Shown in pieces: positions 5,621-59,026 of a stretch of DNA of 64,000 nt; the stretch's first letter is position 1, and every line of letters begins with the position of its first letter. The DNA is from Opitutaceae bacterium (lineage in GTDB: Bacteria; Verrucomicrobiota; Verrucomicrobiia; Opitutales; Opitutaceae). The DNA lies in contig JAIXWY010000003.1 in NCBI GenBank assembly GCA_027490995.1, forward strand, positions 186,001-250,000, in the 5' to 3' direction. Below the pieces are notes generated by a model. That model saw nothing but the letters and a program-made list of their open reading frames with translations. It was not told the DNA's origin and did no database searches. The translations under genes and the position numbers were made by a program.

Positions 5621-8600
5621 ATGCTTCATGCCCCAGATTTCGTCGAGCTCATTGAGCGTCGGGCCGCCCTTCATGGTGGTCTGCCGGCGGTGCATTTTTT
5701 GGCGGAGGGTGAGGGGCAGATGGATACATTGGACTATGCGGGTTTGGATACCCGGGCGCGGGCGATCGGCGCACGCCTGCGGGCGGAAGCTGGCGAGGGT
5801 GGGCGCGTGCTGCTGTTGCATCCCCCGGGTTTGGAGTTTGTGGCGTCGTTCTTCGGTTGCCTGTACGGCGGTGTGGTCGCCATCGCGGCCTACCCGCCGC
5901 GGAACGCTCGGCATATGCCGCGCATCGAGGCGATCCTCCAGGATGCTCAGGTGCGGGTGATCGTCAGCACGCGCGAGGGCCTGGCGAAGGTCGAACCGTG
6001 GTTGGGCGAACGGGCGTCGGCGTTCCGCCTGATTGCGAGTGACGATTTGATCCAGGCGGATCCGTCTTGGCGACGTCCGGCGCTCCGTCCCGAGTCGCTC
6101 GCCCTGCTGCAATACAGCTCCGGCTCCACGGGCCAACCGCGCGGGGTGATGATCACCCACGCCAACATCATGGCTAACGCCGAGATGATTCGGCGCCAGT
6201 TTGGGTACCATGACCAGTCGACGTTCGTAAGCTGGCTCCCGATCTACCACGACATGGGCCTGATCGGGAATCTGCTCCAGCCGCTCTATCTCGGGACCTC
6301 CACCGTACTGATGCCGCCGGCGGCGTTCCTGCAGAAGCCGGTGCGGTGGCTGGCCGCGATCAGTCGCCAACGAGCCCGGACAACCGGGGCTCCCAATTTC
6401 GCGTTCGATCTTTGCGCGCGGGTGATCACCGCGGAACAAAAGGCCGAGTTGGACCTCAGCTGTCTGGAGCTCATCTACAACGGCTCCGAGCCGATCGATG
6501 CCCGAGCCTTCGACCGATTCGCCGATGCGTTTGCCAGCTGCGGCCTGCGGCGTACCTCGCTGTATGCTTGCTACGGCATGGCGGAGACCACCCTGCTCGC
6601 GACCGGCGGCAAGCCGGGCGAGGGATACCGCGCGCTGCGTCTCGACCCGGCCGCTCTCGGCCGCAACGAGGCCGTGGAGGTCGCCGCCGAGCGTAGCGAC
6701 GGGCTCTCCTCCGTCAGCTGTGGCCGCTCCGTGGTCGATCAGGAACTCGCGATCGTAGACCCAGTTTCGCTCCAAGCTCGTCCACCGTCTACCGTCGGAG
6801 AAATCTGGCTGCGCGGCGCTCATGTGTCCCCTGGCTACTGGGGCCAGCCCGAGCGTACCGCCGAGAGCATGGCGGCTCGCCAGGCCGATGGTTCCGGTCC
6901 GTGGCTGCGCACGGGCGACCTCGGCTTCCTCAAGGATGGCGAGCTCTACGTCACGGGCCGCATCAAGGATGTCATCATCGTACGCGGGAAGAATCACTAC
7001 CCGCAGGACATCGAGCGCACCGCGGAGCTGAGTCACCCGGCGCTTCAGCCGGGGTCATGCGCCGCTTTTGCCCTCCGGATCGACGGGGTCGAGCACGTCG
7101 GCATCGCCGCCGAGGTCCAGCGCACCGCCTTGCGCACGCTCGACGGCCCAGCCGTCGTCTCCGCCATCCGGCGCGCCGTACTCGAGGCGCACGAGCTCTC
7201 CGTTTTCGCCGTCACCCTTCTCAAACCCGTGACTCTGCCCAAGACTTCCAGTGGCAAGCTGCAGCGCTTCGCCGCCCGCGCCGGCTGGGAATCCGGTACG
7301 CTCGAGAGCGTCTTCTCCGATCGTGAGCCAGCGAGCGCCGTCGCCGGGGCCGCTGCTTCGCCGGGTGACGTCACCCGCACCTCGAGCGGATCGACCGCAC
7401 TGTCCGCGTCGGCTCCCGTGGTCGCCGGGGGCAGTGTCGCCGCGCCTTCACTCCCGCGGCTCGGCGGCGATCCCCAGCGGAGCCGCCAACGCGCCGACGC
7501 GATGATCGCGTGGATCCGCGGCTACGCCGAGCAGCGCGTCAATTCCTACCTCATCGACGAGCGCCGCTGTATCCCGCCGTACGTCGTTCTCGACTTCGGG
7601 AACAACGGCCTCCTGGGGCTGGAGGTGCCGGAAGCTCTGGGTGGCTCGGGTCTCACCACCGTGGATACGCTGAGGGTCGGCGTGCAGCTCGGCGCCGTGG
7701 ACGTGAATTTGTCGTCTTTCGTGGGGGTCCACAATGCCCTCGGTCTGCGCACGCTGCTCCGGCATGGTAGCGAGCGGATGCGGCGCGAGGTGATCCCGGC
7801 CATCGCGGCCGGCCGCGAGCTCATCGCCTTCGCTTTCACCGAGCCCGCCGCCGGTTCGAACCCGCGCGCGATCACCGCGACGGCCACCCCGGATGGCACC
7901 GGGGGATGGCTCCTTCATGGCAGCAAGCGCTGGATCGGTACGGGCGCTTGGTCCGGATGGATCGTCGCGGCCGCCCACCTGCTCGACGCTTCCGGTCGCG
8001 ATCGCGGCATCACGACGTTCCTGCTCCGGCAGGGTTCACCGGGGCTGCGCATGGGGACCGAGGAGATGACCATGGGCATGCGGGGAATGATCCAGAATAC
8101 GGTCCACCTCGAGGGCATGCGGGTCGGTCTCGAGGACATGATCGGTGCCCCGGGCTCGGGCATGGATGTGGCGCAGGATACGATGAAGTTTGGGCGCCTG
8201 TTCATCGCCACCGTCAGCCTTGGCACCATGCAGCGCTGTGTGCAGCTGATGCTGCGCTACGCGGTGCGGCGTTCGATGTCTACCGGCCGCCTTGCCGAGA
8301 ATCTCATCACGCGGGAACGCATCACCGAGCACATCGTGCGCATCGCGGCGCTCCGCTCGTTCGTTGATCAGTTTGGCCGCTGGTACGATGAGGGTCTCGA
8401 TGTGCCCGAGGAGTTCTTCGCCCTGGTGAAATACGCCGGGCCGGAGTCGCTCGGCCTCGCGGTCGACCATCTGCTGCAGATGCTCGGGGGCCGCGGCTAC
8501 ATCGAGACCAACTTGGTCCCGCAGCTTTACCGCGATGCCCGGCTGGTGCGCATTTTCGAGGGTCCGACCGAGACGATGATCATGTTCCTCGGCTCGCGCA

Positions 8601-9694
8601 TCGCGAGCCAGAGTCGGCCGCTGCAGGAATTCCTGCGCGAGCGGCTGCGCGCCCCGGAGATTGCCGATCTCGTGTTTGCCGCCGCCGATCTCGCCAAGCA
8701 GCACCATCTCGTCAAGGGCACCGAGGCCGAGCAGGCTCTCGGGGTCCAGCGGGTATCGCGCGTGTTGGGTGAGTTCGGGCTGTGGGCGCTGTGGCTCGCG
8801 ATCGTGGAGAACGATACGGCCGGCGACGATCCCGAGCTGCCGCGCGCACGGGTCTGGTTGCGGCGGCTCATGAACGAGGGCCATCAGCGGCTCTCCCAAC
8901 CGATCCCCGCGCTCGAGCTGCCGCTCAGCACGGCTGAGATCCTGGCTGCCGCGGCACGCCACCGGGAGTCGATCGGCGACGTGGAGCAGCGCGCCGCCGG
9001 GGTCGAGTTCGACCTCGATCCTCTGCTGCGCCGCGCCGATCTCGTTACTCCACCCGCCGCCAGCGGTGGCGTCGGAGGAGTCGCGAGCGCATCGGTACCC
9101 TTCGGCGGCTCCGCGCCGCGTGTCGCGACGAGCGTTGCCGCTTCTGCCGCGGTGCCCGCTCGCCCCGCGGTCGCCGCATCCTCCACGTCCGGGGTCGCCC
9201 CGGTTGAGGTGCGCGCCCACGCCGCCGAGATCGAGGCGTGGATGTGCACGTGGATTGGTCGTCGCCTACAGCTCGCCGCCGATAAGATCGACCCGCTCAA
9301 GCCGTTTTCAGACTTCGGGATCGACTCGCTCACCGCGGTGGAATTGTCCGCGGGCTTGGGCGAGTGGTTGAAGCGCGACCTGCCGACGACGCTGACGTGG
9401 GATTATCCGAACATCCGCCTGCTGGCCACCAACGTCGCCACGCCGGGTGCCATCAAGGCGCCGACCGCGGTCGTGGGCGCCGCGGCCCCTGCCGCCGCTG
9501 CCGCATCCGGTGCCGTCGCTCCCGCTTCTCGCACCGCGTCCGCCTCGGCCGGAACGTTCGCCGCCAAGGGGCCCGCTCCCGCTTTCCCTGCCGCCTCGAG
9601 TCTCGGCACCCCACAACTGGAGGCGATGTCCGAGCAGGACCTCGCCGCGCTGCTCGCCGAGGAGCTCAAGTCCCTTCGCGGGCCGGGTAAGTGA
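5621..9694 (+). CDS. starter protein: fatty acyl-AMP ligase - acyl-CoA dehydrogenase-like - ACP (FAAL-ACAD-ACP)
   Basis: About 1357 residues from the ATG at 5621 (MLHAPDFVELIERRAALHGG). Domains: FAAL, roughly residues 1-570, with YSSGSTGQPRG (165) and the FAAL-typical SWLPIYHDMGLIGNLLQPLY; ACAD-like, about 620-1030, with the flavin signature FTEPAAGSN (near 737) and the YEGT-equivalent FEGPTE whose Glu980 is the probable catalytic base; a proline/alanine linker; ACP, about 1205-1290, with GIDSLTAVE (Ser1236 for phosphopantetheine). A second Ala/Pro tail follows. FAAL activates a free fatty acid as acyl-AMP and loads it on the ACP; the ACAD domain would introduce alpha,beta-unsaturation. It starts the lipopeptide line, and its stop overlaps or abuts the next start (GTGACGATG). 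An upstream start at 5546 is less likely because homology begins at LHAPDF. Confidence 0.9.
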   Translation: MLHAPDFVELIERRAALHGGLPAVHFLAEGEGQMDTLDYAGLDTRARAIGARLRAEAGEGGRVLLLHPPGLEFVASFFGCLYGGVVAIAAYPPRNARHMPRIEAILQDAQVRVIVSTREGLAKVEPWLGERASAFRLIASDDLIQADPSWRRPALRPESLALLQYSSGSTGQPRGVMITHANIMANAEMIRRQFGYHDQSTFVSWLPIYHDMGLIGNLLQPLYLGTSTVLMPPAAFLQKPVRWLAAISRQRARTTGAPNFAFDLCARVITAEQKAELDLSCLELIYNGSEPIDARAFDRFADAFASCGLRRTSLYACYGMAETTLLATGGKPGEGYRALRLDPAALGRNEAVEVAAERSDGLSSVSCGRSVVDQELAIVDPVSLQARPPSTVGEIWLRGAHVSPGYWGQPERTAESMAARQADGSGPWLRTGDLGFLKDGELYVTGRIKDVIIVRGKNHYPQDIERTAELSHPALQPGSCAAFALRIDGVEHVGIAAEVQRTALRTLDGPAVVSAIRRAVLEAHELSVFAVTLLKPVTLPKTSSGKLQRFAARAGWESGTLESVFSDREPASAVAGAAASPGDVTRTSSGSTALSASAPVVAGGSVAAPSLPRLGGDPQRSRQRADAMIAWIRGYAEQRVNSYLIDERRCIPPYVVLDFGNNGLLGLEVPEALGGSGLTTVDTLRVGVQLGAVDVNLSSFVGVHNALGLRTLLRHGSERMRREVIPAIAAGRELIAFAFTEPAAGSNPRAITATATPDGTGGWLLHGSKRWIGTGAWSGWIVAAAHLLDASGRDRGITTFLLRQGSPGLRMGTEEMTMGMRGMIQNTVHLEGMRVGLEDMIGAPGSGMDVAQDTMKFGRLFIATVSLGTMQRCVQLMLRYAVRRSMSTGRLAENLITRERITEHIVRIAALRSFVDQFGRWYDEGLDVPEEFFALVKYAGPESLGLAVDHLLQMLGGRGYIETNLVPQLYRDARLVRIFEGPTETMIMFLGSRIASQSRPLQEFLRERLRAPEIADLVFAAADLAKQHHLVKGTEAEQALGVQRVSRVLGEFGLWALWLAIVENDTAGDDPELPRARVWLRRLMNEGHQRLSQPIPALELPLSTAEILAAAARHRESIGDVEQRAAGVEFDLDPLLRRADLVTPPAASGGVGGVASASVPFGGSAPRVATSVAASAAVPARPAVAASSTSGVAPVEVRAHAAEIEAWMCTWIGRRLQLAADKIDPLKPFSDFGIDSLTAVELSAGLGEWLKRDLPTTLTWDYPNIRLLATNVATPGAIKAPTAVVGAAAPAAAAASGAVAPASRTASASAGTFAAKGPAPAFPAASSLGTPQLEAMSEQDLAALLAEELKSLRGPGK

Positions 9695-9696
9695 CG

Positions 9697-12600
9697 ATGA
9701 GCGGGACGTCGGAAATGGCTTCGCTTCTGCGCGAGGCGTACGGACAGATCCGTACGCTGCGCGCCCAGCTGGCCGACCACAGCGCACCGATCGCGATCAT
9801 CGGTGTCGGCTGCCGCTTTCCCGCCGGGGCGTCCGATCTCGCGTCGTTCGCCCGGGTGCTCCGTGCGGGTACCGACGCGGTCGGTCGCGTCCCTTCCGAT
9901 CGCTGGGACGCCGATGCGTTCTACGACGCGGACTCGGATGCGCCGGGAAAGATCCACACGCGCGAGGCCGCGTGCCTGGAGGGGATCGATCAGTTTGACG
10001 CCGATTTCTTCGGCATCTCGCCGCGCGAGGCGGAACACCTCGATCCACAGCAGCGCTTGCTGCTCGAGGTGGCGTGGTCAGCCTTTGAGGACGCTGCCAT
10101 TCCGCTCGACCGTCTGCGTGGCAGCCGCACGGGCGTGTTCACCGGATTGATGTATGGCGACTACGTCGTGCGCGCGCTGCGAGAGCGCGGACTCGATGGC
10201 ATCGGCGCCTATCTCGGCACCGGCGGCACGTTCAGCGCCACGGCGGGTCGGCTCGCCTATGCGCTCGGTCTTCAAGGCCCCACCATGGCGGTCGACACGG
10301 CTTGCTCGTCGTCGCTGGTGTCCGTGCACCTCGCCTGCCAAGCCCTGCGCAACGGCGAGTGCGATCTCGCCCTCGCGGGCGGCGTCAACGCGCTGCTCAC
10401 GCCTGAGCCGAGCATCAATCTCACCAAGGCACGGATGATCTCGCCGCGCGGGCGCTGCCGTACGTTCGACGCTTCGGCCGACGGCTACGTGCGGGGCGAG
10501 GGCTGCGGCCTCATTGTACTCAAACCGCTCGCGCGCGCCCGCGCCGACGGCGATCGCGTGCTCGGCGTGATTCGCGGCTCGGCCGTGAATCAGGACGGGC
10601 GCAGCAGCGGGTTGACGGCGCCCAATCGTCTCGCACAGCAGGCTCTGCTCGAGGCGGCACTCGCGACGGCTGGCGTCGCGGCGTCCGACATTGGCTACGT
10701 CGAGTGTCACGGCACGGCGACGCCGCTCGGCGACCCGATCGAGGTCGCGGCGTTGCGCGAGGTGTTGCTGCGCGATCGAGCGGCAGATCGTCCGCTCGCG
10801 ATTGGTTCGGTGAAGACCAACTTCGGCCATCTCGAGGGTGCCGCCGGCATTTGCGGACTTTTAAAGGCGCTCTTGGTGGTCCGAGGCGCGGAGGTCTTTC
10901 CTCACCTACACCTGCAGACGCTCAACCCGCGGATTCGGCTCGATGATGTGCCGCTGCGAATCCCCACGACCGCGGCTCCGTGGTTCACGGCGGGCGGTCC
11001 GCGCTTGGCGGGCGTGAGTTCGTTTGGCTTCGTCGGCACCAACGCGCACGTGATCCTCGAGGCGCCGCCCGAGGACGAAGCGGTCGCGGCCTCCGCGCCA
11101 CGCACGCCGCAGGTGCTGACGCTGTCCGCGGCGTCCCCTGAAGCGCTTCGCGAGCTCGTGACGCGCCAAGCAGAATGGCTGGAGGCGAATCCGCAGGCGG
11201 AGGTGGCGTCGGTCGCACGCACGCTGAACACCGGGCGGCTTCATCAGGCCCACCGACTCGCGATCGTGGCCGCTGATGCGGCCGAGGCGCTGCGCGGGTT
11301 GCGCGCGGGCTCCGGTGCGGCGGTTGTGCGTGGAGAGGTACGTCTGAATCGCGTCCCACGTCTTGCGTTCCTGTTCACCGGACAGGGAGCACAGAAGCCG
11401 GGGATGGGCCTCGCCCTCGCGGCTGACGAACCGACTTTCCGCGCTGCGTTGGAGCGTTGCGATGCGCTCCTGCGTCCACACCTCCCGCGCCCGTTGCTTG
11501 GGTTGCTCGCGTCTGCTTCACCAGCGGAGCTGAGCGCGACCGGAGTCGCCCAGCCGGCCTTGTTCTCGCTGGAGTATGCTCTGCTGGAAATGTGGCGGGC
11601 TTGGGGCGTGCGCCCCGATTTCCTGCTTGGTCACAGTCTCGGTGAATACCTCGCCGCCGTCGCGGCGGGAGTTTTCAGTCTGGAGGACGCACTCGATCTG
11701 GTTCGTGTCCGGGGGCAGTTGATGCAGGCCCTGCCGGCCGGCGGCGGGATGGCGGCGGTCTTCGCCGACGAGGAGACGGTGCGGCGCCTTCTGGCGGAGT
11801 CGCCGGCGGGTTTGTCCGTGGCTGGATGCAACGGACCTGCCGAGACGGTGATCTCTGGACCGCTCGCGGCACTGGAGGTGGCGATCGGCCACTGCAGTCG
11901 CCAAGGTCTCACCGCGCAGCGGCTGGAGGTATCTCACGCGTTCCATTCCGAGCTGATGCAGCCGATGCTGGATGCCTTCGGCACCGCACTCTCTCGCGTC
12001 ACCTTCCACCCCGCGCGCATTCCGATCATCAGCAACGTGACCGGCGAGATCGATGCCGCCGGCGCGATGTCGCAGCCCGACTACTGGCTGCGTCAGATCG
12101 TTTCCCCGGTGCGCTTTGCGCCCGGGGTGCGTGCGCTGGCCGCGACGGGTGCGGAGCTGGCGCTCGAGCTGGGACCGCGCGCAGTGCTCACGCGACTGGC
12201 CGCGAAGGCGCTCGCCGATGGCGGAGTGACGTGGCTGTCCAGCCTCGACGGCGGTGCCGACGAAGCATCCGCCGTGGCGCGCGCCGTCGCCGCGTTGCAC
12301 GCGCGCGGGGTCGCGCTCGATTGGCATGCGGTGCACGCGACCCAGGGCGGCCGCCGCATCGGACTTCCGGGTTATCCCTTCCAGCGGCGCCGCTATTGGT
12401 TGCCCGCGGCGGTGACGGCTGCCGGTGGCACGCCAACGACTACCCGGATGGAACCCGCCGCGGCGAGCTCCGGTTTGACCGCACCGGGCGGGGTCGTCGC
12501 GCCGTCCGTGGCTTCGGCTCCGACGATGCCGCAGGTGCGGCCGACGCGGCCGGCATTCTCGGTCATGTTCTTTGCGGCCACCCCTGAGGCCGGCGATCCC

Positions 12601-30955: not shown

Positions 30956-30970
30956 CCCATTTTTCATTCC

Positions 30971-42025
<11,055 letters not shown>

Positions 42026-42054
42026 ACCCTTGCGATCCGCCACGATTCCACGTG

Positions 42055-48000: not shown

Positions 48001-50343
48001 CCGATGGATCGTCTCACGCAACTGATCGATGAGGCACAACCCTCGGTGGTGCTCTTGCAGGATCACCTCTCGGATCGCCTGCCCTCGGGCATGTTCTATG
48101 CACTCGCGATTGATGCCGGCGAAGCCTCTTTTGCCGGCGAATCGGCGGAGAATCCTCCCCCGGCCGGCGGTCCTGAAAGCCTGTTGTATGTCATGCACAC
48201 CTCGGGCTCCACGGGAACCCCGAAGGGCGTGGCGGTGCCGCACCGCGCCGTGCAGCGGCTCGTGATTGAGCCTAACTTCGTCTCAATCGCGGCGTCAGAC
48301 CGGGTGTTTCAGTATGCCCCGCTGTCGTTTGATGCGTCGGTGTTGGAAATCTGGCTGCCGCTGCTGAACGGCGCACAGCTTTGGATCGCGCCCCCGGGCG
48401 CCCTGACGCTCGCGGAGCTGGGTGCCGCGCTCCGTGCTTCGGGTGCGACGACAGCATGGTTCACGGCGGGTCTGTTCCATCAATTGATCGACCACCAGCT
48501 CGCTGACTTGTCCGGGCTGCGTCAGATCCTCGCGGGCGGTGACGCCCTGTCGGTTGCTCACGTCCGTGCCCTTGCGAAGGCGCAGCCGACTCTCCGCATC
48601 ATCAACGGTTACGGGCCCACGGAAAACACCGTGTTTACCACGTGCCACACGGTCTTCGCCGCGGCGAACCTCGGAACCAGCGTGCCGATTGGACGTCCGG
48701 TGAACGGCACGAGTGTCCTCATCGTGGACCGCCGCGGTGAACCGGTGCCCGTCGGAGTGCCCGGCGAACTTGTGACCGGCGGAACCGGACTGGCGCGCGG
48801 GTATTTCCGGCAACCCGAGGCGACAGCGGAGCGCTTTGTGAGCCACCCCGGCTTAAACGGCGAGGGTACGCGAGTGTATCGCACGGGTGACCGGGCGCGG
48901 TGGCTGCCGGACGGGACGATCGAGTTCCTGGGTCGCCTGGATCAGCAGGTCAAACTCCGTGGCTTCCGGATTGAACTTGGCGAGATCGAGGCTGCGCTGC
49001 GCGAGCAGCACGCGGTGCGCGATGCCGTGGCCCACGTCCGCGGGACGGGTGCGGACAAACAACTGGTCGCGTACTTTACGACCGCCGCGGACGAATCGCC
49101 TGCGCCGGCCGAGCTGCGAGAGTTCCTCGGCGGCCGCTTACCGGCTTACATGGTTCCGGCGGTCTTCGTGCGTTTGGCGGAGCTTCCGCTCGGACGGAAC
49201 GGGAAGGTTAACCGCCGTGCCCTGCCGGATCCCGATACGGTCGCGGGCGCGCAAGCCAGCGGTCTCGGCCCCCGCACACCGCTGGAAGCCCGTCTGGTGG
49301 CCATTTGGCAGGACGTGCTCGGCGTTGCCCACGTCGGGGTTCGCGATCTCTTCTTTGAGCTGGGTGGTCACTCGCTCTTGGCGACGCGCCTGCTGGCGGA
49401 AGTGGAGAAGCGCATCGGTGCCCGAGTGACGCTGAACACCCTCTTCGAAGAGGGGACGATCGAGGCGATGGCGGCGGCGATTGAGTCGGGTGCGCCGGCT
49501 TCGGCGGCCTCGCCCTTGGTGGCCTTGAAGCCAGAAGGTTCACGACGTCCCTTCTTCTGCGTCCATCCCGGAGGCGGATCGGTGCTCTCGTACTTCGACT
49601 TGGCCGCCCGATTCCCCGCGGAGCGTTCCTTCTACGCGCTGCAGGCATCGGGCTTGGACGGCAGCGTGCCTCCGTTGCGCTCGGTCGAGGAGATGGCTGC
49701 GGCGTATCTCGCCGCGATCCGCGCGGCCTTTCCGGGTGGAGGTCCTTACCACCTCGGCGGCCACTCGTTTGGCGCAAGTGTGGCGTTTGAAATGGCGCGG
49801 CAACTTGAGACGATCCACGGCGAGAAGGTGGGTGCCCTCGTCCTGCTCGATCACCTCGCTCCGGACCGCGCGCGAACGATGATCGACCACGAACCGACAG
49901 ACGTCGAAGCGTTGGAATTCATGGCGCACCAGATCGGCGCCCACTTCGGGGTCCGTTTTCACCTCCCAGCGTCGGAGATGGAGTCACGTTCGACGGCGGA
50001 GCGCCTCGAGTTTTTCCTCGAGCGCGCGCGCGAGGTGGGCATCGCTCCTCCCGGAGCGGATGTGGCCATGATCGCCGGACTCGTGGCCGTTTATCAGGCG
50101 AACCTGCACGCGTTGCTCCATTACCATCCCGGTACCTTTGGCGGCGGATTGACCTTAGTCCGCACGGCGGGCTTTGCGGCGGAGACTTCCGAGGCTCCGG
50201 CCGCCGGCTGGGACACGCTGGCGCGCGGGCCCGTCGTGATCGTGGACGCAGACGGCGACCATACGAGCATGCTGCGTGCGCCCCACGTGATCGGTCTTGC
50301 CGCGCGCCTCGGCGAGCTCCTTGACGCCGCCGACACCCCCTGA
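42055..50343 (+). CDS. NRPS 4: C-A(NMT)-PCP-C-A-PCP-TE, modules 8 (N-methyl-Asn) and 9 (Val-like), release
   Basis: 2762 residues from ATG 42055; GTG 42052 is an alternative. C8 has HHIIGDGW. A8 reads D-L-T-K-V-G-E-V-G-K, one change from the Asn code DLTKLGEVGK. A SAM methyltransferase (about 945-1205; LEIGSGSGMILFAL; INSVIQYF) is inserted between core motifs A8 and A10, the standard place for N-methylating domains. PCP8 is GGHSL. C9 has HHIVSDGW. A9 (about 1895-2390) reads D-A-L-W-L-G-G-V-F-K, nearest to Val codes of the DALWxGGTFK type. PCP9 is followed by a thioesterase (2490-2760) with GHSFGAS (about 2569), LLDHLAP and GDHTSM for the Ser-Asp-His triad. TE should release the nonapeptide, most likely by lactonisation onto Ser2. 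The gene starts about 30 bp after NRPS 3. Confidence 0.93.
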   Translation: MKPDPADQELALLAQLLADEGIERVETTIPRLAEGAPVPASFQQERLWLLQQMEPESSAMNMSAALALDGRLDVPALSRAIGAVVDRHAVLRTTFAVEGEALQQRIGPVAAFALTAEDVIDDDAVKRRVAEETQRVFDLRRGPLFRAVLLRRSSERHILIIALHHIIGDGWSIGVFARELGECYAALCMGRAPVVAPLPVSYGDYAAWQRARLGKEQVKAGLDWWCRELAGLPETELPTDFRRPAVAGPIDGGRVAFAWSPALTKSLRALAETEGATPAMVATASLHALLARYTGETDIAVGMPSANRTPSEVENLIGFFVNLLVVRTSVDGTAGFRTLVRAVRQRMLAAHEFGEIPFQQIVDELKPTRRPNRHPLFQVALAFQNAPGGALSLPGLTVARLDDDQTARFDLEVFLSDREGQLVGTLAYDRRLFRPETMARLAEHWQTLLTSALAAPDAPLALLPMLSRAERARLLDADDVTQRSWPAGTVVDLWRARVAATPTAIALRDGETQWTVAELDARARSIAAELQRRGVGPESLVAVWLDRSPELVAAILGVLETGAAYLPLDPANPVERLRYMLDDSRAVWVLGRSRPSGAPEALWIDLGSIRPVALGAGTEPARPILPASLAYVIYTSGSTGRPKGSEITHAGLINYLRWAVEAYDVASGAGAPLHSSIAFDLTVTSLFPPLLVGRPIDIVREVAGPEGLARQLRSGANASPVKVTPAHLHLLNDLLPPSEARGRARCFVIGGEQLLPAHVAFWRKYAPETRLINEYGPTETVVGCCVHEVTDADLDGEVIPIGRPIANTRLYVLDAALEPVSTGVPGELWIGGAGVARGYRFRPDLSADRFRPDPYSPEAGARMYRTGDRVVRRADGVLEFLGRCDDQFKLRGYRVEPGEIEAALALHPAVRETSVILREDRPGDARLVAYVAAAMDVAQPGVDQERWQDEHVDQWRLMFEENYRQPGVGEDPTFNIIGWNSSYDGEPMSAAEIREWLDDTVAQLRRGAPRRVLEIGSGSGMILFALAPDCTEYLGLDLSAAAAETVRRIAAERGLASVRARQAEAGDFSGIVPASYDLTVINSVIQYFSGPEHLERVLRGAIAATAPGGRVFVGDVRSLALLPVYHASVQFHRAAGEVTRAELATRVQRGLAREEELVVDPGFFRALVEKEPALTGVEFRVRIGSCVNELTKFRYDVILQVGNPRPATDVAAPVRYVLSTPVAESLARDLQVLAWLESGGGVGTVAEFRDVLQRRVAGLAPARTATDSVLPDSRVAGTLTNQPLQAKLARRLVPRLREHLKGRVPDYMIPAAFVLLERLPLTVNGKVDRRALPLPVEEPETVGAAYVAPRSPEEEMLAAIWTDLLGLPRVGMDDDFFALGGHSLLAAQLVARVRAVAGADLALATVFERPTIAGLAPLLAAGRAETAVQPVIERGDDAEWAPLSFSQERLWFLEQLVPGQVTYHVSVLLRLGGQLDVAALGRALDGLVVRHAALRTVFADVGGRGQQRALPADSVGLVEEDMRVLPAAERAAAVKTRAARRAAEPFDFARGPFLRASLYRTDDAEWRLLIATHHIVSDGWSISVAVRELAELYAAARAGRSSSLVAPQLQYADYARWQRGWMRDAVLTEKLAFWRANLADAPQLELPTDHARPAVLSGRGSRVPFALSRETTETLNEIAREHGATLFMVLLAAFTAWLRRESGQDDLVIGTSVANRQRRELEPLVGFFVNTLALRQDTTATQTFADLVLQSRRTCLDAYAHQEVPFEAVVEAVAPRRDLSRTPLFQVVLVLLNLPPAEFRLEELVIAEEPLPVEISKFELMLLLQETPQGLAGAWEFSTDLFSAETVTRFGRHLATLADVAARAPATSLEALPLQAPAEVRRRLDQWNEAARLVPPAITVAARFEQIAARRAGEPALVQGDVTWTYDELNARANRLAWHLRGMGIQGEAPVALLMERSPEAVMAMLAVAKAGGFFIPLNPDDPMDRLTQLIDEAQPSVVLLQDHLSDRLPSGMFYALAIDAGEASFAGESAENPPPAGGPESLLYVMHTSGSTGTPKGVAVPHRAVQRLVIEPNFVSIAASDRVFQYAPLSFDASVLEIWLPLLNGAQLWIAPPGALTLAELGAALRASGATTAWFTAGLFHQLIDHQLADLSGLRQILAGGDALSVAHVRALAKAQPTLRIINGYGPTENTVFTTCHTVFAAANLGTSVPIGRPVNGTSVLIVDRRGEPVPVGVPGELVTGGTGLARGYFRQPEATAERFVSHPGLNGEGTRVYRTGDRARWLPDGTIEFLGRLDQQVKLRGFRIELGEIEAALREQHAVRDAVAHVRGTGADKQLVAYFTTAADESPAPAELREFLGGRLPAYMVPAVFVRLAELPLGRNGKVNRRALPDPDTVAGAQASGLGPRTPLEARLVAIWQDVLGVAHVGVRDLFFELGGHSLLATRLLAEVEKRIGARVTLNTLFEEGTIEAMAAAIESGAPASAASPLVALKPEGSRRPFFCVHPGGGSVLSYFDLAARFPAERSFYALQASGLDGSVPPLRSVEEMAAAYLAAIRAAFPGGGPYHLGGHSFGASVAFEMARQLETIHGEKVGALVLLDHLAPDRARTMIDHEPTDVEALEFMAHQIGAHFGVRFHLPASEMESRSTAERLEFFLERAREVGIAPPGADVAMIAGLVAVYQANLHALLHYHPGTFGGGLTLVRTAGFAAETSEAPAAGWDTLARGPVVIVDADGDHTSMLRAPHVIGLAARLGELLDAADTP

Positions 50344-50372
50344 TCGATTTTTAACCAAACTGCCTCCCGCTT

Positions 50373-51962
50373 ATGTCCAACGCCCTCTATCTTCGGCAAA
50401 ACGTCCAGGTCGAGCCCCTCGTCGAATCGTGGTATGCGTGGTCGCATCTCATTTCGCCGGCGACGGCCGCGATGAACATTGTCGATCGCCACCTCAAGAT
50501 CATGCAGTCGTACGTGCAGGCACCGCAGGTGCACGCCGCGGCGGTGAAGAATCCCGCGATGTTGGGCGGGCCGTTCATCGATTACGATGGCAAGCGCGTG
50601 GACGAAATCCAGGCCCTGATCGACAAGACGAAGCGGGATCAGGGTCAGATGATCGCCTTCACCGAGGCGATCAAGCAGCTCGACCAGATGCTGCGCGTCG
50701 AGGCGAAGGGATTCTCGCTCGAGCCGCTGTACGCGAAGGTGCCGGAAATTCTGAAGGGGTACGTCGAGCTGGTGTACGACATGAACAACCAGCCGTCCTT
50801 CCGGCTGATCGAGCCCCTGCTGTATCAAAGTAAATACTACGATGCGGGCCGACAGAGCCTGATGCTCTCCCTGATCAGCAGCGATGACCGCCCCTTTATT
50901 CTGAGCACCCCCCGCCTCCGGACCCCCGGCGACGTCCATGTCCAGATCCCATTCGAAAGTCCGGTGATCGACGAACTTTTTGCGATGAAATGGAAGGCCG
51001 GCTCTGTGGATGCGATTGCGGACAAGCTTGGTGTGGCGGCGGAGGATCGGGAGTCGTTTGCCAAGATGTTCACGTCGGAGGCGCCGCGTCGCTACGAACC
51101 TTACACGGGCGAGGGCGTTCGCTGGCGGTACTTCGGCCATGCCTGCATTCTCGTGGAGGCGGGTGGCACCTCGGTGCTTCTCGATCCGGTACTCAGCTAC
51201 ACGTACGATCACGAGATTGCGCGTTTCACGTACGAGGATCTGCCGGAGACGATCGATTACGTCCTGATCACGCACAATCACCAGGATCACATCCTGTTCG
51301 AGACGATGCTCCAGCTGCGCGGACGCGTGAAGCACGTGGTGGTGCCCCGCAACGGCAACGGTGCGATTCAGGACCCGTCGCTGAAAATGATGCTCGAGGC
51401 GGTGGGCTTTAAGAGCGTCCTTTCGATCGAGGAGTTTGAGACGATTCAGACCCCGGTGGGTCGGATCACCGGCTTACCGTTCTTCGGTGAACACGCGGAT
51501 CTCGCGATTCGCACGAAGAGCGCGTTCCTCGTCGACCTCCACGGCCACCGCCTGATGTTCGCGGCCGACTCCTGCAACGTGGAGCCGAAGCTGTACGAGT
51601 ACACGCAGAAGCTCACGGGCAACGTCGACGTGCTCTTCCTCGGCATGGAGTGCGACGGAGCGCCCCTTTCGTGGATGTATGGGCCGCTGTTGACGAAGCC
51701 CTTGGACCGAAAGATGGACCACTCCCGGCGTCTGGCGGGCTCGAACTACGAGCGCGGCATCGACATTGTGCGCCGCTTCGGCTGCAAGGAGGCGTACGTT
51801 TACGCGATGGGTCAGGAGCCGTGGCTGAACTACGTGATGAGCATCAAGTACACGGAGGAGTCGAACCCGATTAAGGCGTCGAACCAGCTGGTCGCCGAGT
51901 GCCGCGCCCATGGCCTGAAGGCCGAGCGCCTATTCGGTGAACGCGAGATCCTGATCGCCTGA
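50373..51962 (+). CDS. CmlA-like diiron beta-hydroxylase with metallo-beta-lactamase fold
   Basis: 529 residues, the size of CmlA from chloramphenicol biosynthesis (about 532). A helical/beta N-terminal domain of some 240 residues precedes a metallo-beta-lactamase-type domain with VLITHNHQDHILFETMLQLR, the HxHxDH metal motif, then FFGEHADL and MFAADSCN, which supply further ligands. Unlike hydrolases of this fold, CmlA and relatives (for example FrsH in FR900359 biosynthesis) bind a dinuclear iron site and hydroxylate the beta-carbon of a PCP-bound amino acid. It lies 29 bp after the terminal NRPS and overlaps the glycosyltransferase by one base (TGATG). The substrate is unknown: Tyr/Phe4, Asn8, Gln6 and the Val-like residue 9 are candidates. 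A simple hydrolase role is unlikely given length and context. Confidence 0.85.
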   Translation: MSNALYLRQNVQVEPLVESWYAWSHLISPATAAMNIVDRHLKIMQSYVQAPQVHAAAVKNPAMLGGPFIDYDGKRVDEIQALIDKTKRDQGQMIAFTEAIKQLDQMLRVEAKGFSLEPLYAKVPEILKGYVELVYDMNNQPSFRLIEPLLYQSKYYDAGRQSLMLSLISSDDRPFILSTPRLRTPGDVHVQIPFESPVIDELFAMKWKAGSVDAIADKLGVAAEDRESFAKMFTSEAPRRYEPYTGEGVRWRYFGHACILVEAGGTSVLLDPVLSYTYDHEIARFTYEDLPETIDYVLITHNHQDHILFETMLQLRGRVKHVVVPRNGNGAIQDPSLKMMLEAVGFKSVLSIEEFETIQTPVGRITGLPFFGEHADLAIRTKSAFLVDLHGHRLMFAADSCNVEPKLYEYTQKLTGNVDVLFLGMECDGAPLSWMYGPLLTKPLDRKMDHSRRLAGSNYERGIDIVRRFGCKEAYVYAMGQEPWLNYVMSIKYTEESNPIKASNQLVAECRAHGLKAERLFGEREILIA

Positions 51963-53164
51963 TGAAAGCGGTCTTCCTCAACGTTTCTGCGCCGGGGCAC
52001 GTCATCCCGACCCTCGGGCTGGTCAGCGAGCTCGTGAGCCGCGGTGATCGCGTCGCGTACTTTGAGGTGCCGCCCTTCCAAGCGGAGATCGAGTCGCGGG
52101 GTGCGGTGTTCCACGCCTATCCCCCGATCGCGCCGTACCCTGGACCGGGCGGAGCGAACCAATACTACCTGGGTCCCGTGCTCACGTGGTGTGCGCGCGA
52201 GTGGGTGCCCGCGCTCTTGGAGCGCGTGCGGGCGGAGCGGCCTGATTACATTGTGCACGACTCGCTCTGCCTTTGGGGCCGGATTTTGGCACACGCGCTC
52301 GGCGTGCCAGCGGTGGCGTCAGTGGCGACCGCCGGATTCACCCCGCAGACCTTCCATGCTTGCCCGCGACTGCGCCCACAGCGCCGCGCGTGGATCGCGG
52401 AAGCGAGCGCAGGCCTGAAGCTCTTCCGGGATTGGCGACGTGACCTCGCGACGCGGTATGGTCTGCCCCGTCCGATCAATTTCGTCGACACCTTCACCAA
52501 CCAGCAGCCGCTGAACCTCGTGCACCTCCCGCGGGCGCTCCAGCCGTATGCCGAGGCATTTGGTCCGGAGTATGCCTTCGTCGGCGTGTGTACCTCGGCG
52601 CGTGAGCGGCCGACGGATTTCTCCTTTGCGCGGTTGGATGGACGGCCGCTGGTGTACGTGTCGTTCGGCACGATTCACAATCCCGGACTGGCCTTCTTCC
52701 GGAGCCTGCTGGCCGCCGTGGCGACGCGTGACTGGCAGACCGTGCTTGTGCTCAGTCCGGGGATCGAACCGGCGCAGCTCGGGGAGATTCCCGGGAACGT
52801 GATCGTCTTTGCGCCGGGTACGGCGCCGCAGTTGCAGCTCCTCGAGCGAGCGGCGGCGTTTGTGACCCATGGGGCGGGCGGTGGACTTCGCGAAGGCGCT
52901 TGGTTCGGCGTGCCGATGGTGGCGGTCCCGCAGACCTACGAGCAGGAAATCCTCTCCGCGCACCTGGAGGCGCAGGGTGCCGGCGTGATGCTGGAGCCGG
53001 CGCGGGTCACGACCGCAACGCTGGGCGCTGCGATTGAGCGGACGGTGACCGAGTCCGCGATGCGTGTGCGCGCGGGCGCGTTACGTGACGCGTCCCGGGC
53101 GGCTGGAGGTGCAGCCGCGGCGGCGGACGCGATCGCCGCCTACGTGGCGCGGGCGAGGCGCTGA
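51962..53164 (+). CDS. GT1-family (UGT/MGT-like) glycosyltransferase
   Basis: 400 residues with a GT-B fold. The N-terminal acceptor domain starts MKAVFLNVSAPGHVIPTLGL, where the His is the conserved catalytic base of this group. The C-terminal donor domain has PLVYVSFGTI and then FVTHGAGGGLREGAWFGVPM, the HGGxxx nucleotide-sugar motif of macrolide-type GT1 enzymes. It should transfer a sugar from an NDP-donor to the lipopeptide. Hassallidins and herbicolin A both carry a sugar on the hydroxylated fatty acid, so the 3-hydroxyl of the acyl chain is the likeliest acceptor; Thr side chains are alternatives. It is translationally coupled to the CmlA-like gene. No sugar-biosynthesis genes are nearby, so a common donor such as UDP-glucose or GDP-mannose is likely (inference). 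Confidence 0.88.
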   Translation: MKAVFLNVSAPGHVIPTLGLVSELVSRGDRVAYFEVPPFQAEIESRGAVFHAYPPIAPYPGPGGANQYYLGPVLTWCAREWVPALLERVRAERPDYIVHDSLCLWGRILAHALGVPAVASVATAGFTPQTFHACPRLRPQRRAWIAEASAGLKLFRDWRRDLATRYGLPRPINFVDTFTNQQPLNLVHLPRALQPYAEAFGPEYAFVGVCTSARERPTDFSFARLDGRPLVYVSFGTIHNPGLAFFRSLLAAVATRDWQTVLVLSPGIEPAQLGEIPGNVIVFAPGTAPQLQLLERAAAFVTHGAGGGLREGAWFGVPMVAVPQTYEQEILSAHLEAQGAGVMLEPARVTTATLGAAIERTVTESAMRVRAGALRDASRAAGGAAAAADAIAAYVARARR

Positions 53165-53209
53165 GTCCAAACCCACACATTTTTCTGAGTCTAACCCCGG
53201 ATCTTTCCA

Positions 53210-53428
53210 ATGAGCAACGACACTGAAGATACGACGACCTACCACGTGGTCGTGAATGGTGAGGAGCAGTACTCGATCTGGCCGGCCTACAAGCCGTTGC
53301 CGGCGGGTTGGCGCGAGGCCGGTAAGTCCGGACTGAAGGCCGAATGCCTCGAGCACATCAAGACCGTGTGGACCGATATGCGACCCCTGAGCCTGCGGCG
53401 GCAGATGGACGCGGCTGGCTCGGCGTGA
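53210..53428 (+). CDS. MbtH-like protein
   Basis: 72 residues with the full MbtH signature: [40 protein letters not shown] and [11 protein letters not shown], including the invariant tryptophans. MbtH proteins bind the large subdomain of A domains and are needed for solubility or activity of many of them. It is the only copy in the window, so it probably serves one or more of the nine A domains of this line. It begins 45 bp after the glycosyltransferase stop. Its stop (53426-53428) overlaps the probable GTG start of the phosphopantetheinyl transferase. Confidence 0.96.
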
Positions 53429-54162
53429 GTGGTCCCGGGCTCTGCTCGCGGGACGATGTGCTCAACGTGAAGGTGCACGTCTGGCGTCTGCCCCTTGAGC
53501 GCGCCCCGGCGACGGTGGCCGCTTGGTTAGCGGAGCTTTCGGTCGAGGAGCAGGCCCGCGCCGCGCGCTTTCGGCAGCCGGCCGACGTGGCTCGCTTTGT
53601 TCTCGGGCGGCGGGCGCTGCGGCGCATCCTCGCCGCACGGCTCGGCTGCGCTCCGGCCGCGGTGCCCTTGATCACCGGGCCGAACGGCAAGCCCTTGCTC
53701 GCGGCCGGACAGGCCCCCTGGCACTTCAATCTCAGTCACAGTGGCGACTGGGTGCTCCTTGTGCTCGCTTGGGAGCGCCGGGTGGGCATCGACGTGGAGG
53801 CGTGGCGCGAGCTTGAGTTCGCGGCGCTCGCGGAGCGCGCGTTCGCTCCGGAGGAGCGTGCGGCGCTGCTGGACGCGTCGGAGGCGGAGCAGGCCGCCAC
53901 CTTTTTCGCGATTTGGACCCGCAAAGAAGCACTCCTGAAGGCCCGCGGGCTGGGGTTGGGAGCGTTTCCACTGGAGGACTTCGCGGTGGAGGCGGATCCC
54001 GCGGTGCCCCGGCCGCGCGTCCTGCGGTGGCGGGGGGAAGAAGAGCCGGGTCGGACCTGGAGCCTCTTCACGCTGCCGGTGGCCGGCCGGTGCAGCGCCT
54101 GTGTGGCGGTGGAAGGTCGCGATCAGAATGCCGTCATTTCCGTCGCGCTCGACGAGCCGTGA
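53425..54162 (+). CDS. Sfp-type 4'-phosphopantetheinyl transferase
   Basis: 245 residues from GTG 53425, chosen because GTGA overlaps the mbtH stop; GTG codons at 53458 and 53467 are also possible. Motifs include [35 protein letters not shown] (Mg/CoA-binding Asp and Glu) and [19 protein letters not shown], the WxxKEA motif of Sfp-type enzymes. It transfers phosphopantetheine from CoA to the conserved Ser of the ACP and PCP domains encoded upstream, turning apo synthases into active ones. It is the last gene of the plus-strand operon and faces the type II thioesterase gene. Confidence 0.93.
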
Positions 54163-56141: not shown

Positions 56142-56281
56142 GACGGGAAAGAGAAAAAAGACTGGAATGAAAAGAGGCAATCCCGTGCCGGTGCAGGAGA
56201 CCTTGGCAACGAAGTACAGGGGCGTTTGAGCCCGGAGAGGCGGGCCCGGCGAATCGAAAGGGGAAGGCCGAGGAGCGAAAA

Positions 56282-56414
56282 TTTGGTGGTCCCAAAAGTC
56301 ATTGAATGCACCCGGAGCGCTCGTCTTCACTCGCTCCGTGGTACCATTCCTTTGGCCACTTCAGTAAGATTCTTACGCTCCTTGGTGGTGAATCGCCAAG
56401 GAGCGTTTCTTTTT
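56282..56414 (+). ncRNA. candidate small RNA: chain of hairpins ending in an intrinsic terminator
   Basis: On the plus strand this stretch contains a TTTGG/CCAAA hairpin (56284-56298 area), CGGAGCG (56313-56319) pairing with CGCTCCG (56332-56338), GTAAGA-T-TCTTAC (56364-56376) and a strong terminator at 56376-56414. No plus-strand gene ends nearby; the closest, the phosphopantetheinyl transferase, stops 2.1 kb upstream. A short independent transcript would explain the orphan terminator. Alternatively the structures belong to the leader of the DUF481 mRNA on the other strand. Confidence 0.3.
56376..56414 (+). terminator. intrinsic terminator (plus strand), no gene upstream on that strand
   Basis: CGCTCCTTGG (56376-56385) and CCAAGGAGCG (56396-56405) form a perfect 10-bp stem with a 10-base loop, followed directly by TTTCTTTTT. 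This is a textbook Rho-independent terminator for plus-strand transcription. Confidence 0.8.
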
Positions 56415-57208: not shown

Positions 57209-57316
57209 GGATTTCCTTTGGCGTGAATGGCGGCAGGTGAATCTACCGCTTCCACAGGAGGCCGTCGGGTGACTGAAGTGTCAACCGGCAAACCTTGCCG
57301 TTGCCATTTCGTCGCA

Positions 57317-58999: not shown

Positions 59000-59026
59000 A
59001 GGGACGGGGGGAGTCGGGAGCCGCGC

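What the first reader, a model, noticed from the sequence alone, without database searches (positions are those of the whole stretch)
5621..54162. Hassallidin/herbicolin-like glycolipopeptide pathway, probably in a verrucomicrobium
Seen: a collinear operon FAAL-ACAD-ACP, PKS, then nine NRPS modules reading Gly-Ser-Thr-(D-Tyr/Phe)-Thr-(D-Gln)-Gly-(NMe-Asn)-(Val-like), plus TE and a glycosyltransferase. Known: hassallidins are 2,3-dihydroxy-acyl, sugar-bearing nonapeptides with D-Tyr4, Dhb5, D-Gln6, Gly7, NMe-Thr8, variable residue 9; herbicolin A has the same plan with Gln6, Gly7 and NMe-aThr8. Inference: this is a third, divergent branch of that antifungal scaffold, with new residues at positions 1, 2, 8 and 9, and possibly an antifungal.
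Basis: partly seen in the sequence, partly recalled or inferred. Interest (0 to 1): 0.92.

Follow-up and report, generated by a model that had tools for sequence, protein, structure and literature searches.

The report
Freshwater bacterial hassallidin-type lipopeptide gene cluster
An uncultured bacterium carries an intact set of genes that should build a fat-tailed, probably sugar-bearing ring peptide laid out like known antifungal peptides, but with several changed building blocks and extra oxygen-adding enzymes.

Summary
The cluster is real, intact and larger than reported (5621 to about 62394): FAAL-ACAD-ACP, a PKS (KS-AT-LLM-KR-ACP) and nine NRPS modules in four genes reading Gly-Ser-Thr-Tyr/Phe-Thr-Gln-Gly-(N-Me)Asn-Val-like, E in modules 4 and 6, TE. 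The host is a verrucomicrobium near Opitutaceae MAGs. Module partition (2|2|3|2), codes 3-7 and N-MT8 match the hassallidin synthase; A4, A7, C3, C6 and C8 group with hassallidin/herbicolin-type domains in both trees. E3, Thr1/2/8 and the dehydrating C2 are not matched, so it is a divergent variant, not a hassallidin.

Four related MAGs hold the cluster; one lacks the Gly1 monooxygenase, absent in frame. The 12 parts compared are under purifying selection. Best reading: a lipodepsipeptide oxidised at the lipid-peptide junction (2,3-dihydroxyacyl, alpha-hydroxy-Gly1), CmlA restoring at residue 8 the hydroxyl that Thr8 supplies in relatives. No product is known; antifungal action is untested.

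The parts
5621..9694 (+). FAAL - acyl-CoA dehydrogenase - ACP starter protein
   Evidence: Pfam; relatives at 88, 82, 61, 61 and 65%; motifs
9691..15504 (+). type I PKS module KS-AT-LLM-KR-ACP; malonyl-type AT (HAFH), KR with HAAGVWRD
   Evidence: motif meaning recalled
12553..13590 (+). luciferase-like monooxygenase domain (TIGR04020) inside the PKS, predicted alpha-hydroxylation of the beta-ketoacyl chain
15501..23210 (+). NRPS modules 1-2: TubC_N docking, C1-A1(Gly, with LLM insert)-T, C2-A2(Ser)-T
17760..18782 (+). luciferase-like monooxygenase domain inserted between A4 and A5 motifs of the Gly1 adenylation domain; absent in relative G002
   Evidence: 487 bits, cut-off 244; PuwE 6ket E 1.1e-107
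23207..30955 (+). NRPS modules 3-4: C3-A3(Thr)-T, C4-A4(Tyr/Phe)-T-E4
30971..42025 (+). NRPS modules 5-7: C5-A5(Thr-like)-T, C6-A6(Gln)-T-E6, C7-A7(Gly)-T; C6 in the clade of mostly Ser/Thr-following C domains
42052..50343 (+). NRPS modules 8-9: C8-A8(Asn) with N-methyltransferase insert-T, C9-A9(Val-like)-T-TE
44917..45906 (+). N-methyltransferase insert of module 8 (approximate limits)
50373..51962 (+). CmlA-type non-heme diiron beta-hydroxylase
   Evidence: PF18456 E 7e-99; PDB 8a90 E 1.4e-157, CmlA 4jo0 E 2.3e-122
51962..53164 (+). MGT-family (GT1-type) glycosyltransferase
   Evidence: TIGR01426 273 bits, cut-off 260; 48.9% homologue in Nostoc cluster
53210..53428 (+). MbtH-like protein
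53344..54162 (+). 4'-phosphopantetheinyl transferase
   Evidence: PF01648
54213..55031 (-). type II thioesterase
   Evidence: PF00975; relatives
55116..56330 (-). DUF481 protein, next to TEII also in G002 and G003
56696..57208 (-). DUF697 protein
57317..58999 (-). cyclic peptide export ABC transporter
   Evidence: TIGR01194 317 bits, cut-off 286; homologues in Skermanella, Fukatsuia and herbicolin clusters
59027..60268 (-). spermidine/putrescine-type solute-binding protein
   Evidence: 24.6% homologue in G002
60265..61308 (-). SPFH/Band 7 (prohibitin-like) membrane protein
   Evidence: G002 and Skermanella
61624..62394 (-). second DUF697 protein

Best explanation
The cluster makes a cyclic lipodepsi-nonapeptide on the hassallidin/jagaricin/herbicolin assembly-line plan. 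Inferred steps: FAAL loads a fatty acid on the ACP and the fused acyl-CoA dehydrogenase may desaturate it; the PKS adds two carbons, its LLM hydroxylates C2 and its KR reduces C3, giving a 2,3-dihydroxyacyl (perhaps 4-ene) starter. Module 1 adds Gly, oxidised to alpha-hydroxyglycine by the LLM inside its A domain. Ser2, Thr3, D-Tyr/Phe4, Thr5 (probably dehydrated to Dhb by C6), D-Gln6, Gly7, N-Me-Asn8 and a Val-like residue 9 follow. The TE closes a lactone, most likely on Ser2, the place of Thr2 in hassallidin. The CmlA-type enzyme hydroxylates a carrier-bound residue, most likely Asn8, restoring the beta-hydroxyl that NMe-Thr8 supplies in hassallidin and jagaricin, where the sugar sits (assumed by its authors for jagaricin C); the adjacent GT then glycosylates the product. 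Export is by the cyclic-peptide ABC transporter. Shown here: gene content, domain order, codes, homology, selection. Inferred: all chemistry, ring, sugar site and activity.
For: Codes 3-7 and NMT8 as in hassallidin; partition 2|2|3|2 and E4, E6 shared; A4, A7, C3, C6, C8 group with the family in both trees; by summed bits the leading rows among those listed are Aulosira 2122 and Nostoc 2044 for M6-7, Nostoc 1602 and Aulosira 1551 for M8-9. The GT has a 48.9% homologue next to modules 8-9 of the Nostoc hassallidin-like cluster. C6 clade: the preceding A domain is Ser/Thr in 10 of 13 members, Gly in 2, not read in 1 (codes). LLM precedents: PuwE (PMC4219810 passages), SolF/MtaG/MelG on Gly (PMC10204066 passages). 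The A domain hosting an LLM has a Gly-type code in 10 of 10 in-A cases. CmlA family acts on carrier-bound residues (PMC7794379 passages). dN/dS 0.02-0.25 over 12 parts.
Against: E3 missing; positions 1, 2, 8, 9 differ. Raw BLAST places only 5 of 9 C and 3 of 9 A domains at the same hassallidin position, and for 4 of 9 C domains the top hit is unrelated background. A6 and C7 groupings change between trees. her_C6 and nhs_C6 lie in the 'dehydrating' clade although residue 5 there is coded Gly, so the clade alone does not prove Dhb5. E domains group with herbicolin/Skermanella, not with hassallidin. No LLM, CmlA or ACAD match in any of the eight reference stretches. Nothing ties CmlA to Asn8 rather than Tyr4 or residue 9. 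GT could act on the fatty acid, as in herbicolin. No product or expression data.
Confidence: 0.68

Rival explanations
1. Independent assembly: an ordinary lipopeptide synthase whose residue order resembles hassallidin through convergent or piecewise recruitment of A domains, with a different product shape and target.
For: Protein identities to the family are only 34-44%; A1, A2, A8, A9, C1, C2, C9 do not group by position; background domains outscore the family for 4 of 9 C domains; A6 and C7 support is unstable.
Against: Same four-gene partition (one of 56 ways to cut nine modules into four genes), same E4/E6/NMT8, exclusive clades for C6, A4, A7, C3, C8, homologous GT beside M8-9 in Nostoc.
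Confidence: 0.17
2. The module-1 monooxygenase triggers cleavage, as in myxothiazol and melithiazol: the alpha-hydroxyglycyl carbinolamide breaks, releasing a fatty amide and leaving a glyoxylyl-capped octapeptide.
For: The LLM sits between A4 and A5, the MtaG/MelG position; SolF, in the line for solanimycin B, which keeps hydroxyglycine, has it between a8 and a9 (PMC10204066 passage).
Against: [quoted passage not shown] here eight modules follow and would be spent on a lipid-free peptide; relative G002 without the LLM keeps the rest of the cluster under selection.
Confidence: 0.1
3. The glycosyltransferase is a self-protection enzyme that masks the peptide inside the cell, not a maker of the final structure.
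For: It scores over the cut-off of the MGT family and also matches, below cut-off, macrolide-inactivating and OleI self-immunity models; it is of another family than the Aulosira, herbicolin and Skermanella GTs.
Against: A 48.9% homologue sits beside modules 8-9 of the Nostoc hassallidin-like cluster; hassallidin, herbicolin A and jagaricin C are glycosylated products (PMC4282715, PMC12077216 passages). No reactivating glycosidase was looked for.
Confidence: 0.15

Closest known systems
Hassallidin synthase (Aulosira laxa NIES-50 plasmid, AP018308; named hassallidin in PMC8600333 passage)
   Same: Nine modules split 2|2|3|2; Thr3, Tyr4, Thr5, Gln6, Gly7 codes; E4, E6; NMT8; MbtH
   Different: Hassallidin has E3, Thr1, Thr2, NMe-Thr8, Gln9, a GT2-family GT, an Asp_Arg_Hydrox protein; no LLM, CmlA or ACAD match in the fetched stretches; a PKS beside it matches KS-AT at 47%
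Hassallidin-like cluster of Nostoc sp. UHCC 0926 plasmid pn1 (unannotated, my reading)
   Same: M5-7 and M8-9 layout, NMT8 insert, Gln6, Gly7; homologous GT beside M8-9 (48.9%)
   Different: Gly code at 5, Thr8, other residue 9; M1-4 not in the fetched stretch
Herbicolin A synthase (Pantoea agglomerans ZJU23 plasmid, NZ_CP068441)
   Same: Gln6, Gly7, NMT-type insert in module 8, E4, E6; exporter, MbtH, PPTase annotated
   Different: Thr1-3, Leu-like 4, Gly5, Thr8, other residue 9; E3; no LLM, CmlA, ACAD or PKS match in the fetched stretches; sugar on the 3-hydroxy fatty acid (PMC4282715 passage)
Jagaricin / hml cluster (Chromobacterium haemolyticum)
   Same: Nine modules in four genes, Thr-Tyr-Thr-Gln-Gly core, NMe residue 8 (PMC12077216 passages only; DNA not fetched)
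   Different: Thr1, Thr2, E3, NMe-Thr8; Leu predicted and His found at 9
Skermanella mucosa pSM-2 cluster (uncharacterised, NZ_CP086108)
   Same: Modules 1-7 of the same layout; cyclic-peptide exporter, Band 7, DUF697 and TEII homologues
   Different: Thr1-3, E3, other code at 6; modules 8-9 not in the fetched stretch
SolF, MtaG, MelG Gly modules with an embedded flavin monooxygenase (PMC10204066 passages)
   Same: Monooxygenase in a Gly adenylation domain, a4-a5 for MtaG/MelG
   Different: Different products and places in the line; sequences not compared here
PuwE monooxygenase (PDB 6ket)
   Same: Matches the in-A LLM over its full length; predicted tailoring of the acyl chain (PMC4219810 passages)
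   Different: Follows an aminotransferase, giving 3-amino-2-hydroxy; here a KR should give 3-hydroxy

Membership tests
hassallidin/jagaricin/herbicolin synthases | nine NRPS modules in four genes split 2|2|3|2 with TE | tested here: met
   against hassallidin:
hassallidin/jagaricin/herbicolin synthases | A-domain codes Thr3-Tyr4-Thr5-Gln6-Gly7 (hassallidin/jagaricin form) | tested here: met
   (331 of M5 is Phe instead of His in three of four clusters)
hassallidin/jagaricin/herbicolin synthases | E domains in modules 3, 4 and 6 | tested here: not met
   E4 and E6 present, E3 absent
hassallidin/jagaricin/herbicolin synthases | N-methyltransferase in module 8 | tested here: met
hassallidin/jagaricin/herbicolin synthases | Thr at 1, 2 and 8 | tested here: not met
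   Gly, Ser, Asn codes
hassallidin/jagaricin/herbicolin synthases | C, A and E domains group by position with the family | tested here: inconclusive
   stable yes for A4, A7, C3, C6, C8; unstable for A6, C7, C5; no for A1, A2, A8, A9, C1, C2, C9; C4 and E partial
hassallidin/jagaricin/herbicolin synthases | dehydrating-clade C domains in modules 2 and 6 | tested here: inconclusive
   C6 in the clade (support 1.0), C2 not, fitting Gly1
hassallidin/jagaricin/herbicolin synthases | homologous glycosyltransferase | tested here: inconclusive
   48.9% homologue in the Nostoc hassallidin-like cluster, but GT2 in Aulosira and Gly_transf_sug in herbicolin and Skermanella
hassallidin/jagaricin/herbicolin synthases | lactone-closed octapeptide ring, lipid and sugar on product, antifungal action | not testable with these tools
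   needs product
Gly A domain with embedded LLM (MtaG/MelG type) | LLM between A4 and A5 of a Gly-coding A domain | tested here: met
Gly A domain with embedded LLM (MtaG/MelG type) | alpha-hydroxylation of the glycyl residue | not testable with these tools
   needs enzyme assay or product
CmlA-type diiron beta-hydroxylases | CmlA_N domain plus metallo-beta-lactamase-like domain over the full length | tested here: met
CmlA-type diiron beta-hydroxylases | beta-hydroxylation of a carrier-bound amino acid | not testable with these tools
   substrate residue unknown

The most novel reading that the evidence does not exclude
These Opitutaceae make a third chemical branch of the sterol/raft-acting lipopeptides whose lipid-peptide junction is oxidised at neighbouring carbons (2,3-dihydroxy, possibly 4-ene acyl, then alpha-hydroxy-Gly1), a sphingoid-like head; the Gly1 oxidation is an evolvable cassette that one lineage lost in frame; CmlA on Asn8 replaces the lost Thr8 hydroxyl as sugar anchor; and the SPFH/DUF697/exporter set, shared with the Skermanella cluster, shields the producer's own membrane.
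Probability: 0.2. Interest if true: 0.78.

Novelty: new variant of a known kind. Interest (0 to 1): 0.56.

Why it matters
It extends an antifungal lipopeptide assembly line, known from cyanobacteria and proteobacteria, to uncultured Verrucomicrobiota. Among the titles and abstract starts listed by my searches (open-access library only; one search listed 20 of 66 papers, 12 of 14) none describes such a cluster there. It gives a testable product and, in relative G002, an apparent natural removal of a monooxygenase domain from inside an adenylation domain that left frame and code intact, a useful guide for NRPS engineering. It also offers a case where a lost side-chain hydroxyl may have been replaced by a separate hydroxylase.

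Tried and rejected
Considered and rejected: that the two LLMs are a recent duplication inside the cluster (the PKS LLM groups with other non-A-domain LLMs, the NRPS LLM in the half that holds all in-A LLMs; 53.5% identical to each other). That G031 and G585 hold further members: they were the only other genomes with C6 matches at E 1e-40 among 387 phylum genomes, but their codes read Ser or Thr, then two DLFNNALTY domains and others, another peptide. That the CmlA gene is widespread in the family: 5 of 252 genomes have a full-length match; the other 96 matching genomes match short stretches starting at residue 208 or later. The dN/dS row 'LLM in A1 vs G002' is a paralogue comparison (PKS LLM of G002) and is dropped; dS to G003 is near saturation. 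L017 (Baikal MAG) has the FAAL gene at a contig end but no C domain match in its genome, so it is not counted as a cluster. L015 and L016 are 14113/14118 identical over the fetched 14.1 kb although the genomes with these contigs are placed in different genera: misbinning or very recent transfer, so they may be one line. Dropped before the trees: background C domains under 400 HMM positions; A domains under 440 positions, under 300 bits or over 620 residues. 28 locus ids were left out of the LLM scan as pieces or duplicates. No structure prediction or fold search was run.
Full report
Observation. The window lies at G000:C12:186001-250000 of a 3.47 Mb, 15-contig, 94.7% complete genome. Large collinear + strand frames run from 5546 to 54162. 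Translations show a FAAL-ACAD-ACP protein, a PKS and four NRPSs of 2569, 2582, 3684 and 2763 aa. Pfam supports the first two and the accessory genes. HMMs made from these and reference domains locate C-A repeats giving nine modules, with E after modules 4 and 6, an insert in A1 and one in A8; PF00668 counts 11 places in the whole genome, all in this cluster. Conserved motifs are intact: HHxxxD in the 11 C-type domains, Ser in nine NRPS T domains, TE GHSFG, KS DTACSSS, AT GHSLGE/HAFH, ACP GLDSL.

Specificity. Aligning A domains on motif columns gives M1 DILQIGLVW (Gly), M2 DVWHVSLVD (Ser), M3 DFWNIGMVH (Thr), M4 DASTLAAVC (Tyr/Phe), M5 DFWNIGMVF (Thr-like), M6 DAWQFGLID (Gln), M7 DILQWGLIW (Gly), M8 DLTKVGEVG (Asn), M9 DALWLGGVF (Val-like). 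In the same call hassallidin M3-M7 read DFWNIGMVH, DASTIAAVC, DFWNIGMVH, DAWQFGLID, DILQLGVIW. Residue names come from recalled code tables.

The PKS holds a luciferase-like monooxygenase domain between AT and KR (residues 965-1271), and module 1 holds another (TIGR04020, 487 bits against a cut-off of 244) placed between motifs A4 and A5 of the Gly adenylation domain. The latter aligns full length with PuwE, PDB 6ket (E 1.1e-107). The aminotransferase and monooxygenase of PuwE are proposed to make a 3-amino-2-hydroxy acyl chain (PMC4219810, passages). In Gly modules of myxothiazol, melithiazol and solanimycin an embedded flavin monooxygenase is held to hydroxylate the glycyl alpha carbon, placed between a4 and a5 in the first two and between a8 and a9 in SolF (PMC10204066, passages). 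Of 22 LLM domains found in the loci scanned, 10 lie inside A domains and all 10 hosts have Gly-type codes (9 DILQ..W, one DMVQ..W). In the tree the PKS LLMs and in-A LLMs fall in different halves, so the two were recruited apart.

The gene after the last NRPS, 50373-51962, is a CmlA-type diiron enzyme (PF18456 E 7e-99; PDB 8a90 E 1.4e-157 and CmlA 4jo0 E 2.3e-122). CmlA and FrsH hydroxylate the beta carbon of carrier-bound residues (PMC7794379, passages). Then come the glycosyltransferase (TIGR01426 273 bits, cut-off 260), an MbtH and a PPTase. On the minus strand, TEII, DUF481, DUF697, a cyclic-peptide export ABC transporter (TIGR01194 317 bits, cut-off 286), a solute-binding protein, a Band 7 protein and a second DUF697 follow to 62394. 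Homologues lie beside the cluster in G002 (TEII, DUF481, ABC downstream; SBP, Band 7, DUF697 upstream of the FAAL), partly in G003 (TEII, DUF481, DUF697), and TEII, ABC, Band 7 and DUF697 in the Skermanella mucosa cluster. Upstream in the window, suf genes and a Fur-type gene are housekeeping.

Relatives. A scan of one genome for each of 84,980 species with the FAAL protein returned 79 loci: MAGs titled Opitutaceae 88% (L013), Verrucomicrobiota 82% (L014), Opitutae 61% (L015, L016), Opitutia 65% (L017), and 74 others at 36-48%. Genomes of L013 to L016 each hold 11 C-type places; that of L017 none. Codes of the modules read agree with the window except single positions: G002 M7 (Ile at 239), G003 M2 (Ile at 299), M5 (His at 331) and M9 (Trp at 239); G001 M4 and M7 were cut by contig ends and not read. 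In 252 genomes of the family searched, 5 have a full-length CmlA match, from 4 of 49 genera; within the window's genus 2 of 10 listed. By contig number and coordinates these five are the window's genome and those of L013 to L016. L015 and L016 are 14113/14118 identical in the fetched part although placed in different genera. The distribution is patchy. NG86 dN/dS is 0.02-0.25 for the 12 parts compared once one paralogue row is dropped; CmlA is the most constrained (97.5% identical to G001, dN/dS 0.02), and the in-A LLM has 0.042 (G001) and 0.082 (G003); dS to G003 is near saturation.

A natural domain absence. G002's module 1 has no LLM. In 60-column windows A1 around it stays 67-100% identical to the window and the code is the same; the window has 1097 nt where G002 has 17, in frame. 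As G003, the more distant relative, has the LLM, loss in the G002 line is the simpler reading. It rests on one MAG contig.

Test against the known family. References: hassallidin cluster on the Aulosira laxa plasmid (named so in PMC8600333), a herbicolin-like cluster in Candidatus Fukatsuia (PMC10364316, passages and section 8), the herbicolin A producer's plasmid, Pantoea agglomerans ZJU23, Nostoc sp. UHCC 0926 (unannotated; read as hassallidin-like from its codes and match) and Skermanella mucosa. Two rounds of FastTree trees with unrelated NRPSs as background give, as support for grouping with same-position family domains (first round; second, with herbicolin and Nostoc added): C3 0.948/0.933, C6 1.0/1.0 (with C2 and C6 of relatives), C8 0.992/0.908, A4 0.881/1.0, A7 0.952/0.978 (second with the Gly5 domains of herbicolin and Nostoc); less stable C5 0.785/0.505, A6 0.28/0.864, C7 0.09/0.96, and in a third tree C7 breaks up; C4 with Skermanella only (0.967/0.916); E domains with herbicolin, Fukatsuia and Skermanella, not hassallidin (0.96). 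C1, C2, C9, A1, A2, A8, A9 do not group by position. The N-MT of the window, G001 and G003 forms no exclusive clade with the family's. Raw BLAST is less clear: the best hassallidin hit is at the same position for 5 of 9 C (C3, C4, C5, C6, C9) and 3 of 9 A (A4, A7, A9; A3, A5 and A6 pick other domains of the same code), and 4 of 9 C domains have a background top hit. By summed bits the two hassallidin-type plasmids lead among the rows listed for M6-7 and M8-9. The gene partition 2|2|3|2 equals hassallidin's.

The glycosyltransferase. Aulosira's GT is GT2-like, those of herbicolin and Skermanella Gly_transf_sug, but the Nostoc cluster has a 48.9% homologue over 397 residues between its M5-7 and M8-9 genes. 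So the window's GT does have a counterpart in the family. The same call finds no match for either LLM, CmlA, ACAD, PPTase, DUF481 or SBP in the eight reference stretches.

Mechanism. Jagaricin work assigns Dhb formation to specialised C domains, reports two Dhb, D-Tyr, D-Gln, NMe-allo-Thr, and assumes the sugar on NMe-Thr as in hassallidin (PMC12077216, passages). The C6 clade here follows a Ser/Thr A domain in 10 of 13 members, a Gly A domain in 2 (herbicolin, Nostoc) and an unread one in 1. Window C6 follows Thr5 and is inside; window C2 follows Gly1 and is outside. So Dhb5 is likely, and Dhb1 not expected. Ser2 can supply the ring hydroxyl that Thr gives in relatives. Asn8 has no hydroxyl, and the CmlA-type gene next to the GT is the obvious candidate to restore it; this is inference, and Tyr4 or residue 9 remain possible. 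Herbicolin's glucose is on the fatty acid (PMC4282715, passage), so the acyl hydroxyls are another sugar site. That this class acts on sterols or rafts rests on an abstract start for herbicolin (PMC10012537, listing) and a reference title for hassallidin.

Verdict. A real, intact, selected pathway for a divergent variant of a known antifungal scaffold. It works on the same plan, but E3 and Thr1/2/8 fail the membership list, so I do not file it as a hassallidin. On checking, the instability of A6 and C7 lowers and the Nostoc GT homologue raises the case, so the main confidence stays at 0.68; the GT self-protection rival drops from 0.2 to 0.15. No title or abstract start listed describes such a cluster in Verrucomicrobiota; one paper reports NRPS clusters in verrucomicrobial sludge bins without naming hassallidin (PMC10681181, passages).

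Noticed in passing
L092, L093, L097, L098, L100 (genomes G127, G011, G032, G076, G028): Five other genomes of the same family carry NRPS modules with an LLM embedded in a Gly-type A domain; L092 reads C-A(LLM)-T. They look like a separate glycine-oxidising NRPS family.
   Followed up: partly
L148-L151 (G031:C67, G585:C52): A same-family and a same-order genome hold NRPSs with Ser or Thr followed by two DLFNNALTY-coded modules and a C domain of the Ser/Thr-following clade: another unexplored line.
   Followed up: partly
L124:40385-45588 and window 56696-62394: Cyclic-peptide exporter, SPFH/Band 7 and DUF697 genes sit beside NRPS clusters in Skermanella and the window's relatives; Band 7 and an ABC transporter are also named in the palmerolide cluster legend. 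Possible self-protection set.
   Followed up: partly
L015 and L016: Nearly identical cluster contigs in MAGs placed in different genera: misbinning or very recent transfer.
   Followed up: no
L133/L134, NZ_CP068441 record ends: The start and end of the circular record repeat a C-A stretch (98.8-100% identical), an apparent unclosed overlap in the herbicolin cluster record.
   Followed up: no
L135:6855-29181: Nostoc sp. UHCC 0926 plasmid pn1 holds an unannotated hassallidin-like M5-M9 with a Gly code at position 5 and a GT homologous to the window's.
   Followed up: partly
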